From: an uncultured Candidatus Poseidoniales archaeon
GTDB lineage: Archaea > Thermoplasmatota > Poseidoniia > Poseidoniales > Thalassarchaeaceae
Direction of reading: 5' to 3'
Assembly: GCA_902560445.1 (NCBI GenBank)
Contig: CACELO010000007.1
Span: 1-47,098 of the forward strand
DNA length: 47,098 nucleotides
This document shows, in pieces, positions 6,463 to 11,723 of the stretch (within the stretch, counting starts at the first letter, position 1; each line of letters opens with the position of its first letter). A program made the translations under genes and the position numbers. Below the pieces are notes generated by a model. The model was given only the letters and a program-made list of their open reading frames with translations, was not told the DNA's origin and made no database searches.

Positions 6463-6517
6463 ATTGGTCTAAGCCAAAAGGCGGCGAGTTCAACAATGGA
6501 GCTGTGCTCCGTTGGGT

Positions 6518-8239
6518 ATGCGCTCACGCGAGTTAGCGGCGTTCTCGATGGTGCTAATCTTGCTGCTAACTCCAATTAGCGGCTGCTTTGGGAGCGAGGA
6601 TTCGAGTTTAGATGCAGGCGACTTGCAGATCAGTTCTGATTCATTGTCTGCGGGTTTTTTCCAAACCCTAGAGTTGACTGCATCTAACAAGATGTCAGTG
6701 TTTGTTCCATTTTTGATTAAGGATCCGGGATCTGGGTTTGTGCTGAATTCTACTGTTATCGATATAGATAATGGCGATACAGTTTCTCTAGAGGTTTTGT
6801 TTCCCCCTCGTTCAGAAGGAATCTATCTACTACTAGGCGAATATGGTCGAGGACACTGGCCGGTTAGAGATGAAGTTGAATCATGGACTTCTTGGTATGC
6901 AAGAGGAGGACATCTGGGGGAAGATAATCTTGGTGCGATTAGGGTACCGGCAAATAATACGACATTCGATACTCTAGAAGTCCATCCAGCAGTAATGCCA
7001 GGTTCTGTTGAGGTCAAATTCGTCCCATCGATTAGAGAATCTACTGTGTCATGGGATGAAGGAGGCGGCCATTCAAGCGGAATGCTACATGGTAGAGTAG
7101 TATACGAACGGCTATACGAGTTATCCGATCCTACTGACACCTTGGATCCTGTGGACGGAAAAGCGGGGTACTACGATAGGTGGGCAGGGCAAGGAAACCC
7201 TGCGTACGAAGATGCTGCTCTGTATATCATTGGAGAATTGGAAAGCTTTGGTCTAGAAGTCATTGCCCATAGGTACGAGTATACAGACATAATGAATGTA
7301 CAGAATCCTGAGGCATACAACATATGTGCATACAAATGGGGGTCCGTTATTCGAGATGAGTGGATGGTTTTTGGCGCGCACTTTGATGTCGCCCCTCCTG
7401 CTAATGCTGTCCTTCTCGATCCTCACATTGTAGGATTCAGAACGTACGGTACTAGAGCTGGTGCGTACGACAACTCTGCAGGGACTGCCATGGTCATGGA
7501 AACCGCTAGAGCTCTTGCAGATTTTGAAACTAGGAGAACGATGGTGTTCTGCCTATGGTCTGGTGAAGAAGGTGGAAAGAGGGGATCGGATTACTGGACT
7601 GAGTACCACGTAAAGGAAGACAACCCCCAGGTGACTGTGATGAACTACATCAATCTCGACATGGCTGGAGTTAATTGGCCCGGTGGAGGTGGTGCGCCTC
7701 ATGGTGACCCTGATCCTCAAATCGACGAAGATGGTTATCCGAAAGACAGTGAGGTGTGGCCTTTGAGAGTATATATTGGCCCGGGCCCAAATCATGACCA
7801 GCTCGACCAGCCAGAGATGGTTGGTCTCTCTAATTGGATAGGTTCTGATGCACTTGGGCTAGAAGAACAAATGGGAACGTTAGTTGGTACAAACTACAGT
7901 GCAGATACTTGGAAAACTTCTGTTTGGCTAGATATGGACCGGCCGGAAGTTATCGTCTATGAAGACACTACAGCTAGGAGTGATCATGCTAGTTTCCAAG
8001 ACAACTTAGGTACTGTAACCATTGGTTTTGGTGGATTAGTAGATGGCTATTGGTGCTATCATCAGGTCTGCGATACGCTAGAAGAAATGGAAGATTGGAT
8101 GGATACAACAGGCAAGGATTACGGAGAAGAAAATACCGGTCTTGCCAATGTTGTAAATAGCCTGGATATGATTACTTGGTGGGCAATGTTGACATTTTTC
8201 CATTGTGATGAACAGCCTATTTTCAACGCTCTTCTTTGA
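6518..8239 (+). CDS. secreted M28-family zinc metallopeptidase, lipoprotein
   Basis: This is a roughly 573-residue lipoprotein: the signal peptide ends in ISGC, followed by about 200 residues of beta-rich N-terminal sequence, then an M28 aminopeptidase domain. Zinc and catalytic residues are visible: His288 (GAHFDV), Asp318 (AYDNSAGTA), Glu350-Glu351 (WSGEEGG), Asp381 (NLDMAG) and His490 (SDHASF). It probably degrades peptides outside the cell, feeding a protein-scavenging lifestyle. ATG 6518 is preferred to the in-frame TTG 6512 because the signal peptide reads naturally from there. It stands alone on the + strand and is followed by a 480-base gene-free region. Confidence 0.92.
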   Translation: MRSRELAAFSMVLILLLTPISGCFGSEDSSLDAGDLQISSDSLSAGFFQTLELTASNKMSVFVPFLIKDPGSGFVLNSTVIDIDNGDTVSLEVLFPPRSEGIYLLLGEYGRGHWPVRDEVESWTSWYARGGHLGEDNLGAIRVPANNTTFDTLEVHPAVMPGSVEVKFVPSIRESTVSWDEGGGHSSGMLHGRVVYERLYELSDPTDTLDPVDGKAGYYDRWAGQGNPAYEDAALYIIGELESFGLEVIAHRYEYTDIMNVQNPEAYNICAYKWGSVIRDEWMVFGAHFDVAPPANAVLLDPHIVGFRTYGTRAGAYDNSAGTAMVMETARALADFETRRTMVFCLWSGEEGGKRGSDYWTEYHVKEDNPQVTVMNYINLDMAGVNWPGGGGAPHGDPDPQIDEDGYPKDSEVWPLRVYIGPGPNHDQLDQPEMVGLSNWIGSDALGLEEQMGTLVGTNYSADTWKTSVWLDMDRPEVIVYEDTTARSDHASFQDNLGTVTIGFGGLVDGYWCYHQVCDTLEEMEDWMDTTGKDYGEENTGLANVVNSLDMITWWAMLTFFHCDEQPIFNALL

Positions 8240-8270
8240 ATGTCGTAAATTTTCTTTAGGTTTAAGTGCC

Positions 8271-8697
8271 TCTCCCCATCGGGGGGGCTTGATGATATTG
8301 GAACACACTCCGCATCTTGCTGGGAAGAATGCAAGTCAATATCATTCCAAGGTTTACGGGTTTAACTCACCCAATAACCCTCTGGCATTTAGCTACAATT
8401 TGTTAGCGGCGGAGATGGTAAGTGAAACTGCATCGAAGAATGCAGAGGGTGGTCCACCCCTCGGACCGAAGGTAGCACAGCCTATTTCTATCGGAGGACC
8501 GTGTGTGCTCACGGATCCTCCTTCTGTACAGAACGAGTTAGAAGGTTATGTAATATGTACTCATCAATATTTAATGAATTATGGATAAGTCGGCAACAGA
8601 GTATTTTTGGTGGTTCGTACCACATTCACCACTCTTTAGTTGACTGTAAAAGATTGCTAGATGATTGTGTAATCCCCCCCTTGAGTAAGGGTGGATT
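8271..8697 (+). ncRNA. gene-free, hairpin-rich region; possible structured RNA or long leader of the viperin operon
   Basis: The space 8240-8721 holds no convincing gene but many inverted repeats: CCCC/GGGG at 8274-8284; ATGATATTG/CAATATCAT (8292-8300 with 8337-8345) enclosing GCATCTT/AAGAATGC; CTGCAT/ATGCAG (8428-8445); GGGTGG/CCACCC (8447-8459); GGAGGACCGTG with CACGGATCCTCC (8493-8521, one bulged A); the palindrome TTCTGTACAGAA (8522-8533); GTGGT/ACCAC with a TCGT loop (8610-8623). The density suggests a folded transcript, either a separate RNA or the 5' leader of the HNH-viperin operon. Strand is assumed from that operon. No known RNA family fits; SRP and RNase P RNA were considered and rejected. 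Confidence 0.4.
8671..8697 (+). promoter_or_regulatory. hairpin just upstream of the HNH-viperin operon ribosome binding site
   Basis: AATCC and GGATT pair around an inner CCCTT/AAGGG stem with loop GAGT. A competing pairing, TGAGTA (8682-8687) with TACTCA (8704-8709), reaches the edge of the AGGAGGT ribosome-binding site at 8709-8715. Two mutually exclusive stems next to a ribosome-binding site could control translation or act as an attenuator. Pairing was read by eye without energy calculation. Confidence 0.35.
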
Positions 8698-8721
8698 TGG
8701 GCCTACTCAGGAGGTTCAGAA

Positions 8722-9306
8722 ATGAGGGGATGGAGAACTCTCTTAGGAGTAGTAAGATTTTTTCTTTTCTACTTCGGCTTGATTTCAAAAGATGATTCTG
8801 TCCTAGAAAAAGATGAGCGCTCTGAATTTCATAAGGAAGGAGATGGGGTTTGTTGCTCGAAATGTGGTCAGAAGATGACACATTATCCTGGTGCTAAAAT
8901 GACTCATCTGACCTACCACGACGGGGTGACGTTCGGCCACTTCTTACCAAAGGCAGTGGGAGGCAAAAATGTTGGGAAAAATTGGGTACAACATGAGTGT
9001 AATCTTTGTAACCGAGCACATGGTAATCTGTTTCTAAAATTAATCCATAAGTATGGACAATATCCTAAAGATGTTCCATTCCTTACTTTACTAAAATTTG
9101 TCATTTACAGTATAGGCGAATTCAATAATTCAATTATTGGTTTTTGGTTCATGGATTACGAAGATCGTTTTCAACAACACAGAGAGGCATTGATTCTGGA
9201 GAAAATGAGTGGAGGAAAGAAGGCAAAATTCAAACAAAAGCGGATTGAAACCGCACGGATGTTGATTGATGCCAGTAGGAAGAGAGCTTTGGAGGGAGCA
9301 ACATGA
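8722..9306 (+). CDS. HNH-type nuclease-like protein with N-terminal hydrophobic helix, coupled to viperin
   Basis: This 194-residue protein starts with a hydrophobic helix (about residues 7-21), then a zinc-knuckle and HNH-like core: CSKC (45-48), GHFLPKAVGG with His73, Asn87 in KNW, and CNLCNRAHGN with Cys93, Cys96 and His100. This matches the H-N-H order of ββα-metal nucleases with two CxxC pairs binding structural zinc. The residue before His73 is Gly rather than the common Asp/His, so catalysis is not certain. AGGAGGT at 8709-8715 gives six-base spacing to ATG. Its stop overlaps the viperin start (ATGA at 9303-9306), so the two are translationally coupled. I do not recognise it as a named family; nuclease activity is inferred. 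Confidence 0.7.
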   Translation: MRGWRTLLGVVRFFLFYFGLISKDDSVLEKDERSEFHKEGDGVCCSKCGQKMTHYPGAKMTHLTYHDGVTFGHFLPKAVGGKNVGKNWVQHECNLCNRAHGNLFLKLIHKYGQYPKDVPFLTLLKFVIYSIGEFNNSIIGFWFMDYEDRFQQHREALILEKMSGGKKAKFKQKRIETARMLIDASRKRALEGAT

Positions 9307-10205
9307 CTCTACCTCCTGCAGTTAATTGGCACTTCTGGCCGTGGTGTAACTATGGTTGCACATTTTGTTTCGCGACGTTTGAGGATATAGATAGGAGTAA
9401 CAGTTTGGAAAAGGAATTGGGATTCAAACTTCTTGAAGAAATGGCTGCTGAAGGTGTCGAGAAGGTGACCTTTGTGGGTGGTGAGCCCACTCTCTGTCCG
9501 TGGCTAGGAGAGTACTTAGTGAAAGCAAAGAGTCTTGCTCTAACTACGTGTATTGTATCTAATGGAACAGGGCTTTCTGAGGAATTCCTCGATTCATGGC
9601 ACGAATACATAGACTGGGTGGGGATCTCAATAGATGCCTCCGATGACAGGCTTCATTACATTATGGGAAGAGGTACGAAAGCAGATCTTGCAGAGGGAAG
9701 AAGTCGTCACCTTGAGGCGGCATTGTTCGCCTGGGAAAGATGTCAAAAGCTAGGAATTAGAATGAAGTTGAACACCGTTGTCTGCAAGGCCAACTTGGAC
9801 AATGACATAACTGAAATAGTTCTTCAAATGATGCCTGAGAGATGGAAGGCATTCCAGGTTCTGCCTATAGATGGGCAGAATGATGGTAGAGTGGAGGATC
9901 TACTGGTTTCAGAAGATGAGTTCTTGGAATGGGTGGAGAGACACAAGGGGGTATCGAACGAAGGAATCAACTTCATTCCGGAGACAAATGAATTGATGAC
10001 TGGTTCCTATGTCATGATTGATTCCCTGGGCCGATTTTACTCCAATATTGAGGGGGCGCACAAGTATACCCGCTCTATTCTCGAAATTGGCATCGAGGAA
10101 GCTTGGAGGGAGAATCAGTTTAACGAACACCACTTCATTGAAAGAGAGGGGATTTACGATTGGAGGACATTGCCCAGCATGGATAATGATTGTAATAGTG
10201 GTTAA
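9303..10205 (+). CDS. pVip: prokaryotic viperin (radical SAM ddh-nucleotide synthase)
   Basis: This 300-residue radical SAM enzyme has Cys15, Cys19 and Cys22 (CNYGCTFC) for the [4Fe-4S] cluster, GGEP (59-62) and SNGTG (86-90). Beyond the generic fold, whole blocks match animal viperin: MKLNTVV then N-x(3)-DIT (154-170), RWKAFQVLPIDGQN (180-193), EWVERHKGV (209-217), the PETNELMTGSYVMID stretch (226-240), SILEIGIEEAW (258-268) and the C-terminal REGIYDW. Viperins convert CTP, or in prokaryotes also GTP or UTP, into 3'-deoxy-3',4'-didehydro nucleotides that terminate viral RNA synthesis. It lacks the amphipathic N-terminal helix of animal viperin and has a short C-terminus. No nucleotide kinase lies beside it, unlike some prokaryotic loci. 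Which nucleotide it uses cannot be told. Confidence 0.93.
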   Translation: MTLPPAVNWHFWPWCNYGCTFCFATFEDIDRSNSLEKELGFKLLEEMAAEGVEKVTFVGGEPTLCPWLGEYLVKAKSLALTTCIVSNGTGLSEEFLDSWHEYIDWVGISIDASDDRLHYIMGRGTKADLAEGRSRHLEAALFAWERCQKLGIRMKLNTVVCKANLDNDITEIVLQMMPERWKAFQVLPIDGQNDGRVEDLLVSEDEFLEWVERHKGVSNEGINFIPETNELMTGSYVMIDSLGRFYSNIEGAHKYTRSILEIGIEEAWRENQFNEHHFIEREGIYDWRTLPSMDNDCNSG

Positions 10206-10729
10206 TCATTCCAAGTGATAGGGAGATGAATCTCGTTCCTTCTCATGAATGGTAATGTCGACATTGGGTTATCGTAAACGGCCAACTTCGCCTCTGAGGT
10301 AGGAGTTAGGCCTTCGGCCTCAACCAACTTACGCAGCTTCTTCTGTAGTCTCAGCGACTTACTTGGGCGAGAGAGGCCAGAGAATTTCAGGACGGCAACC
10401 ACTTCTCCTTCTACATGGAGTAGTTCTACCCCTGAATCATTTGGTTTTGGAAGGTCTTTCATGTTGTGTTCCGATGGCATTGTGAAGGCCATTAGGGATT
10501 CTTCACCAGATTCCCACATGTGAACGGGGGCAGTCATTGCTATGCTTTGTTGCCGTTCGTTTCCTCCAAAGATATATCCAGCGATTCGCCTGAATGGTCT
10601 AGCGGATTCGCCATAATTCATTCCGTCGGTTGAGACTCTAGCTTGTATCGTATCTGTGTATTTACGTACCTCGAAGCCATGATATTTGTGAAGTAACTCA
10701 TACTCGGGTTCCTCGTAATTTGGTGCCAT
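10202..10729 (-). CDS. SOUL family heme-binding-like protein
   Basis: This 175-residue protein carries SOUL/HEBP signatures: FEVRKYTDTIQARV near the N-terminus, FRRIAGYIFGGNERQQSIAMTAPV in the middle (read in two parts, IAGYIFGGN and IAMTAPV), a FTMPSEHNMKDLPKP block, and a C-terminal MRRNEIHLPI. SOUL proteins bind heme or other tetrapyrroles in eukaryotes, and prokaryotic members are poorly characterised. It is convergent with viperin, the two sharing TTAA at 10202-10205 within both stop codons, so no terminator fits between them. It is probably cytoplasmic since no signal peptide is visible. Confidence 0.9.
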   Translation of the reverse strand: MAPNYEEPEYELLHKYHGFEVRKYTDTIQARVSTDGMNYGESARPFRRIAGYIFGGNERQQSIAMTAPVHMWESGEESLMAFTMPSEHNMKDLPKPNDSGVELLHVEGEVVAVLKFSGLSRPSKSLRLQKKLRKLVEAEGLTPTSEAKLAVYDNPMSTLPFMRRNEIHLPITWND

Positions 10730-10766: not shown

Positions 10767-11723
10767 TCAGGATTGGGTTTTAGAAAAGTCAGAGAGGAAA
10801 TTCCACATTAACTCATAGGTGGGTGTTCCATCAATTTCCTCTGGCCAATTGTGATCACGTACTTCCAAACCGTAGTGTTCTATTCTAACGTCATCGATAC
10901 AATCACTGTGGACTATATGCTCGGTGAAAAAACTAGAATCTATTGCATCGGATTCACATCCTGATTTTTCCGCCCAGTAGTCGATGAGTGCTGGAACTTC
11001 GCTCATTGTTCCAACGCCTTCATGCTCTCCTTCTTTCCAATCCCAGTCGGTGTGATAATAGATGATATAATCCAATTTTCCATGAATGTGCATAACCCCC
11101 ATGCCCAAAACTAGGTCGCAGGTTTCTGGATTAACCGGCATAGTCCCGGCGAAGGATGCGACGGCTGCGAATCTATGGTTCAACTGACAGGCAATCTCGT
11201 AAGTGAACATCGCTCCCAAAGAATATCCGATGGCATACAACCTAGTTTGGTCTAGACAATACAACGAAGATAAATTATCTACGATTGCCTCTGAGAAATT
11301 ATTGTCGTCTCTCGAGGTTGCAGCGGTATTCAGGAACCATTCTCCTTCGGCTTCCGTCCTATCTTGTTTTGCAATAGCGTAAGCCATGATGAATTTCTGT
11401 TGTTCCCCCAATTGGTCGAATTGTGCTTGTTGAGCGAAATCCTCTTCTGAATCAGTACCTCCATGGAATGCAATAATCAGAGCCAGTTTTGTTCCAGCTT
11501 CAGAACTTGGAGCGGAGAGTCTGAAAATTCGCTCTTCACCATCTACTATTATTGTTATTTCCTCTTGTAAGATTGCTTCCGATGAAGAAATGCAAGGGTC
11601 ATTTACTGATGTGATTAGATCTGATGTTGATTCTTGGGTTGATGAGGAAATGCCCATACACCCACTAATCGAACTCACTATTATCACAAATGCAAGAAGT
11701 ATTTTTGTCGACTTATTAGGCAT
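10767..11723 (-). CDS. LpqC/PHB-depolymerase-like esterase lipoprotein
   Basis: This is a 318-residue protein with a lipoprotein signal (lipobox SISGC). The alpha/beta hydrolase core shows AFHGGTDSEEDF (oxyanion-loop HGG), the nucleophile elbow GYSLGA, an Asp in HIHGKLDYIIYY, and a C-terminal DHNWPEE His, together a complete Ser-Asp-His triad as in the feruloyl-esterase/polyhydroxybutyrate-depolymerase (LpqC) family. It probably hydrolyses esters of polysaccharides or polymers at the cell surface. It lies just after the M50 protease gene on the same strand (nine bases apart). The substrate is undetermined. Confidence 0.85.
   Translation of the reverse strand: MPNKSTKILLAFVIIVSSISGCMGISSSTQESTSDLITSVNDPCISSSEAILQEEITIIVDGEERIFRLSAPSSEAGTKLALIIAFHGGTDSEEDFAQQAQFDQLGEQQKFIMAYAIAKQDRTEAEGEWFLNTAATSRDDNNFSEAIVDNLSSLYCLDQTRLYAIGYSLGAMFTYEIACQLNHRFAAVASFAGTMPVNPETCDLVLGMGVMHIHGKLDYIIYYHTDWDWKEGEHEGVGTMSEVPALIDYWAEKSGCESDAIDSSFFTEHIVHSDCIDDVRIEHYGLEVRDHNWPEEIDGTPTYELMWNFLSDFSKTQS

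What the first reader, a model, noticed from the sequence alone, without database searches (positions are those of the whole stretch)
8722..10205. Archaeal viperin translationally coupled to an HNH-type protein: candidate two-gene antiviral operon
The radical SAM gene matches animal viperin along most of its length, not only at the CxxxCxxC site. Prokaryotic viperins make ddh-nucleotides that block viral RNA polymerases. Here viperin starts inside the stop of a small HNH/zinc-knuckle gene (ATGA), so the two are made together. I know of nucleotide kinases beside some prokaryotic viperins, but not of an HNH partner. A nuclease that destroys viral DNA or RNA next to an enzyme that halts transcription would be a coherent two-pronged defence; this combination is an inference.
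Basis: partly seen in the sequence, partly recalled or inferred. Interest (0 to 1): 0.9.

Follow-up and report, generated by a model that had tools for sequence, protein, structure and literature searches.

The report
Archaeal viperin beside an HNH gene
A marine archaeon carries a genuine relative of the animal antiviral enzyme viperin, placed directly behind a small HNH nuclease-like gene, but relatives show that the HNH gene lives at the same spot without viperin, so the pair looks like two neighbouring cargo genes rather than a proven two-part defence system.

Summary
Gene 9303-10205 is a true viperin: it passes NCBIfam's prokaryotic viperin cut-off (267.9 vs 180 bits), falls inside the viperin clade (100/100), and its model (pLDDT 92) matches 30 solved viperin chains first. 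It starts inside the stop codon of an HNH-domain gene (8722-9306). The host is a Poseidoniales archaeon.

Both genes fill a ~2 kb cargo slot between an M28 peptidase and a SOUL gene; six contigs in the genus show the empty site. In relative G004 the same slot holds HNH, with the same rare leader motif, and no viperin. Most Poseidoniales viperins (10 of 319 genomes) have other neighbours. ATGA overlaps are common here (5 of 31 co-directional pairs). The HNH's usual acidic residue before its catalytic histidine is glycine. About 96% of ~70 related HNH genes are not beside viperin.

Yet 3 of 10 Poseidoniales viperins have an HNH gene, of differing architecture, next door: more than random placement predicts. 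Published work reports HicA and RelE nucleases beside bacterial viperins. An exchangeable nuclease partner therefore remains possible (about 25%). The viperin is a new member of a known kind; the pairing is suggestive, not shown.

The parts
6512..8239 (+). M28 peptidase gene, left border of the cargo slot (not part of the cargo)
   Evidence: Pfam Peptidase_M28 7.8e-22; directly abuts SOUL in G002, G005, G009:C57, G010, G012, G015
8240..10201 (.). Inserted cargo segment (about 1.96 kb) absent from the empty sites
   Evidence: Window 8100-8235 and 10207/10221-10400 are adjacent in G010, G002 and G009:C57; GC 0.435 vs 0.465 for the window
8678..8715 (+). Leader motif CCCTTGAGTAAGGG-N12-TACTC followed by the SD-like GGAGGT of the HNH gene; candidate hairpin/pseudoknot (structure inferred)
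   Evidence: Found only twice in 146 genomes, both upstream of the HNH gene in this slot: window and G004
8722..9306 (+). HNH-domain protein, 194 aa; CxxC (45,48), H73 preceded by G72, GG (80-81), CxxCN (93-97)
   Evidence: HNH_5 21.7 bits, below the 27.5 cut-off; profile alignments
9291..9298 (+). SD-like GGAGGGAG of viperin, inside the 3' end of HNH
   Evidence: Sequence
9303..10205 (+). Viperin (pVip/SAND), 300 aa, CxxxCxxC at residue 15
   Evidence: NF038283 8.6e-80; 5vsl 3.7e-47; tree; model pLDDT 92, viperins are the top 30 PDB matches
10202..10729 (-). SOUL haem-binding protein gene, right border; its stop overlaps viperin's stop (not part of the cargo)
   Evidence: Pfam SOUL 1.3e-40

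Best explanation
The window carries a genuine archaeal viperin that most likely uses SAM and a [4Fe-4S] cluster to turn a nucleoside triphosphate into a 3'-deoxy-3',4'-didehydro nucleotide that stops viral RNA polymerase. It sits as cargo in a small variable slot between two housekeeping genes, behind an HNH-domain gene that is an independent resident of the same slot. The two are probably co-transcribed and perhaps translationally coupled, but each most likely works on its own: viperin against transcription, HNH as a stand-alone (possibly weakened) nuclease or restriction-type gene. Shown: viperin family membership, fold, slot, HNH without viperin at the same slot. Inferred: the chemistry, antiviral effect, HNH activity and independence of the two functions.
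For: Viperin. Empty site M28|SOUL in six contigs of the genus. G004 carries the interval M28-HNH-SOUL on one contig with no viperin, with the leader motif shared only by G004 and the window among 146 genomes. G008 has the closest HNH relative (about 50% identical) followed directly by M50, and no viperin was detected in that genome. G007 has an unrelated WW-like protein in the slot. About 67 of 70 related HNH hits in 319 Poseidoniales genomes are not beside viperin. HNH relatives in G040 and G068 stand alone among housekeeping genes. Viperins of G015, G271, G180, G121 and G102 have other neighbours.
Against: Genomes with viperin also carry HNH more often (5 of 10 vs 56 of 309, Fisher p=0.025). 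RNases HicA and RelE are reported beside bacterial viperins (PMC10865869). The nearest viperin relative (G009, 96%) has its contig end exactly at the junction, so conservation of the pair in the closest strain is unknown.
Confidence: 0.62

Rival explanations
1. HNH and viperin form a true two-gene antiviral module: the HNH nuclease cuts viral nucleic acid or acts as a toxin triggered when viperin's product alters transcription, and translational coupling fixes their ratio. Across Poseidoniales the nuclease partner is exchangeable (HNH types, NYN), like HicA/RelE beside bacterial viperins.
For: ATGA overlap with an SD inside HNH; HNH genes next to 3 of 10 Poseidoniales viperins, NYN RNases next to the G015 and G428 viperins; statistical excess; published HicA/RelE-viperin neighbours.
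Against: HNH in the same slot without viperin (G004; probably G008); three different HNH architectures and orientations; 4-bp overlaps are common here; atypical HNH active site; in G168 the HNH is followed by an AAA_23 ATPase and viperin has its own thymidylate-kinase-like partner.
Confidence: 0.25
2. The HNH gene is a selfish homing-type or mobile endonuclease that makes this intergenic junction an insertion slot, and viperin is a passenger gained behind it.
For: HNH recurs at or near this junction in three genomes of the genus (G000, G004, G008); stand-alone relatives sit singly between housekeeping genes.
Against: No intron or intein context; no terminal or target-site repeats were found; G007 has an unrelated insert without HNH; the acidic active-site residue is missing.
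Confidence: 0.1
3. The HNH-viperin junction is an assembly artefact joining two strains.
For: The G009 contig starts one base before the viperin ATG, exactly at the junction, and G009 holds a second contig with the empty site.
Against: The junction is a natural gene boundary with an SD, and HNH ends near where its G008 relative ends; viperin and SOUL are joined identically in G009.
Confidence: 0.03

Closest known systems
Prokaryotic viperin / pVip / SAND (NCBIfam NF038283; PADLOC pVip)
   Same: Full-length match above cut-off, CxxxCxxC, fold, phylogenetic position
   Different: No nucleotide kinase beside it; preceded by an HNH gene
Animal viperin RSAD2 (PDB 5vsl, 6q2p)
   Same: 34-35% identity over the fold, TM-score about 0.9 by target length
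   Different: No N-terminal membrane-targeting region (protein starts 7 residues before the conserved NWH); a direct sister relation to animals is not supported by the tree
Viperin loci with HicA/RelE nuclease genes (PMC10865869)
   Same: Small nuclease-type gene directly next to viperin
   Different: HicA and RelE are RNase toxins of toxin-antitoxin families; here the neighbour is an HNH-type protein
Stand-alone HNH endonucleases (Pfam HNH_5; PHROGs HNH families)
   Same: Two CxxC pairs, central H, GG and CN motif
   Different: Below the Pfam cut-off; G replaces the acidic residue before the catalytic H in this protein and in its G008 relative

Membership tests
Viperin (SAND) family | Score above the curated viperin model cut-off | tested here: met
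   267.9 vs 180 bits
Viperin (SAND) family | CxxxCxxC radical SAM motif and viperin-specific conservation through the C-terminal part | tested here: met
   Motif at residue 15; invariant residues to G251 across 17 viperins
Viperin (SAND) family | Placed with viperins, apart from MoaA and other radical SAM proteins | tested here: met
   35-row viperin clade 100/100, Poseidoniales clade 100/99
Viperin (SAND) family | Viperin fold | tested here: met
   pLDDT 92.1; the top 30 PDB matches are viperins
Viperin (SAND) family | Makes ddhCTP, ddhUTP or ddhGTP | not testable with these tools
   Needs an enzyme assay
Viperin-kinase locus type | Nucleotide kinase gene adjacent | tested here: not met
   Neighbours are HNH and SOUL; kinase-type genes do adjoin viperin in G180, G102 and G168
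HNH endonuclease (HNH_5) | Score above the Pfam gathering cut-off | tested here: not met
   21.7 vs 27.5 bits
HNH endonuclease (HNH_5) | CxxC...H...N...CxxCN core | tested here: met
HNH endonuclease (HNH_5) | Acidic metal ligand before the catalytic His | tested here: not met
   GH in the window and G008; EH in the 28 other sequences compared
HNH endonuclease (HNH_5) | beta-beta-alpha metal fold | tested here: inconclusive
   Single-sequence model, pLDDT 46
Conserved HNH-viperin two-gene system | The same HNH gene retained next to viperin in relatives | tested here: not met
   G004 has HNH without viperin; only 3 of 10 Poseidoniales viperin loci have any HNH neighbour, each of a different architecture

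The most novel reading that the evidence does not exclude
Poseidoniales viperins form defence modules with an exchangeable nuclease partner (HNH or NYN), so that an enzyme making RNA chain terminators and a nuclease act together, with HNH expression controlled by a structured leader.
Probability: 0.2. Interest if true: 0.7.

Novelty: new member of a known kind. Interest (0 to 1): 0.36.

Why it matters
Viperin links animal innate immunity with prokaryotic antiviral defence, and most work concerns bacteria and Asgard archaea; this places full-length viperins in an abundant marine archaeal order and shows how one sits as cargo in a variable chromosomal slot. If nuclease partners prove functional, viperin loci would join the defence systems that combine transcription arrest with nucleic acid cleavage.

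Tried and rejected
Viral homologues: one distant viperin hit in IMG/VR and no HNH match in phages or plasmids. The HNH profile could not be used for a viral contig scan. No Rfam family in the segment. The spacer RNA is not unusually stable (z -1.24). No terminal or target-site repeats marking a transposon. Single-sequence HNH model too poor to interpret. No PADLOC family other than viperin among 42 window proteins. Bernheim 2021 and Shomar 2024 full texts are not held, so what they say about viperin neighbours could not be checked. A search for papers with viperin, HNH and operon found only two general papers.

Full report
What is there. The window lies in a Poseidoniales (marine group II) archaeal genome: the nearest named viperin hit is a Euryarchaeota MAG (ARS96, NYXO01000036.1) and the next ones are Poseidoniales (order-level searches). 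Gene 8722-9306 and gene 9303-10205 overlap by ATGA. The second is a viperin by curated model, PADLOC, PDB sequence search, tree and predicted fold. The first has an HNH core but scores below Pfam's cut-off.

The slot. In G002, G005, G009 contig C57, G010, G012 and G015 the M28 peptidase and SOUL genes that flank the pair in the window are directly adjacent and convergent. The window has about 1.96 kb between them. G004 has M28, then an HNH gene (36% identical over 100 residues), then SOUL, on one contig and without viperin. G008 has an HNH gene (48-51%) next to M50 at a contig end, with no viperin detected in that genome. G007 has an unrelated WW-like protein there. G009 contig C8 has a 96% identical viperin followed by SOUL, but the contig starts one base before viperin's ATG, so its upstream gene is unknown.

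HNH has its own leader. CCCT-GAGTAAGGG-N-TACTC just before the SD of the HNH gene is shared by the window and G004 and by no other place in 146 related genomes. This argues that the HNH gene with its leader is homologous between the two slots and independent of viperin. GAGTA can pair with TACTC, so a hairpin or pseudoknot near the SD is possible (inferred from two sequences only).

Survey. True viperins occur in 10 of 319 Poseidoniales genomes and in 12 of 390 genomes sampled across the phylum, four of which are shared with the first set. Immediate neighbours vary: kinase-type gene plus AAA ATPase (G102); CARF-like gene, small overlapping gene, kinase-type gene and UPF1-like helicase (G180); CARF-like gene and the same small overlapping gene upstream (G271); NYN-SAP RNase (G015); AAA ATPase (G121); HNH downstream (G085); thymidylate-kinase-like gene downstream and HNH divergent upstream (G168). 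Outside Poseidoniales none of 26 loci showed this HNH type within the fetched flanks; a Pseudoalteromonas viperin has an annotated DUF262-HNH gene about 4 kb downstream, a different type.

How strong is the HNH association? A 19-sequence profile finds about 70 HNH hits in 61 of 319 genomes. Three are next to viperin. The three HNH proteins differ: 194, 448 and 321 aa; the latter two are weakly related and their viperins are sisters, so there may be only two independent events. Defence genes cluster, so adjacency alone does not show cooperation. ATGA overlaps occur in 5 of 31 co-directional pairs in the window, including pairs with no evident functional link.

HNH activity. All but two of the 30 compared HNH sequences have E before the catalytic H; the window protein and G008 have G. 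In well-studied HNH nucleases that acidic residue binds the metal (established knowledge, not checked here), so activity may be altered; this was not tested.

Mechanism. By family knowledge (stated in PMC10732462), prokaryotic viperins make ddhCTP, ddhUTP or ddhGTP, which end RNA chains. I infer the same here; which base is modified cannot be told from these data. Published work notes HicA and RelE RNases beside bacterial viperins and suggests cooperation (PMC10865869), and viperins are reported in Thermoplasmatota (PMC12988326). I therefore file the viperin as a new member of a known kind, keep the two-gene module as a live rival at 0.25, and treat the HNH as independent slot cargo as most likely.

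Noticed in passing
window 8678-8715; L046:383-421: Leader motif CCCT..GAGTAAGGG..TACTC before the HNH SD, found only in G000 and G004 among 146 genomes; possible hairpin or pseudoknot.
   Followed up: partly
L056, L060, L151, L058, L112 (upstream of viperin): CARF-like/winged-helix regulator genes beside archaeal viperins in Heimdallarchaeota and Thermoplasmatota (Pfam HFX_2341_N and Card1 CARF in L056 and L151; only weak in L058), hinting at control by a cyclic-nucleotide-type signal (inference).
   Followed up: partly
L110:6006-6335 (same gene as L058:1643-1972) and L052:4663-4992: Unknown 110-aa protein gene overlapping the start of the viperin ORF in two Poseidoniales genomes.
   Followed up: no
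L042:8186-8986 and L150:7006-7635: NYN-type RNase genes directly downstream of viperin in G015 (with SAP domain) and G428.
   Followed up: partly
L111:6305-9107: HNH gene followed by an AAA_23/SMC-like ATPase gene beside the G168 viperin, an order reminiscent of Septu-type ATPase-HNH pairs (recalled, not tested).
   Followed up: no
window 10767-11723: Lipoprotein esterase gene between SOUL and M50 present in the window but not in the compared relatives.
   Followed up: no
L041:1: The G009 contig starts exactly one base before the viperin ATG, at the HNH-viperin junction of the window; reason unknown.
   Followed up: partly
L101:4182-4991: A WW-like membrane protein gene occupies the M28-SOUL slot in G007, showing that the slot accepts unrelated cargo.
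   Followed up: no
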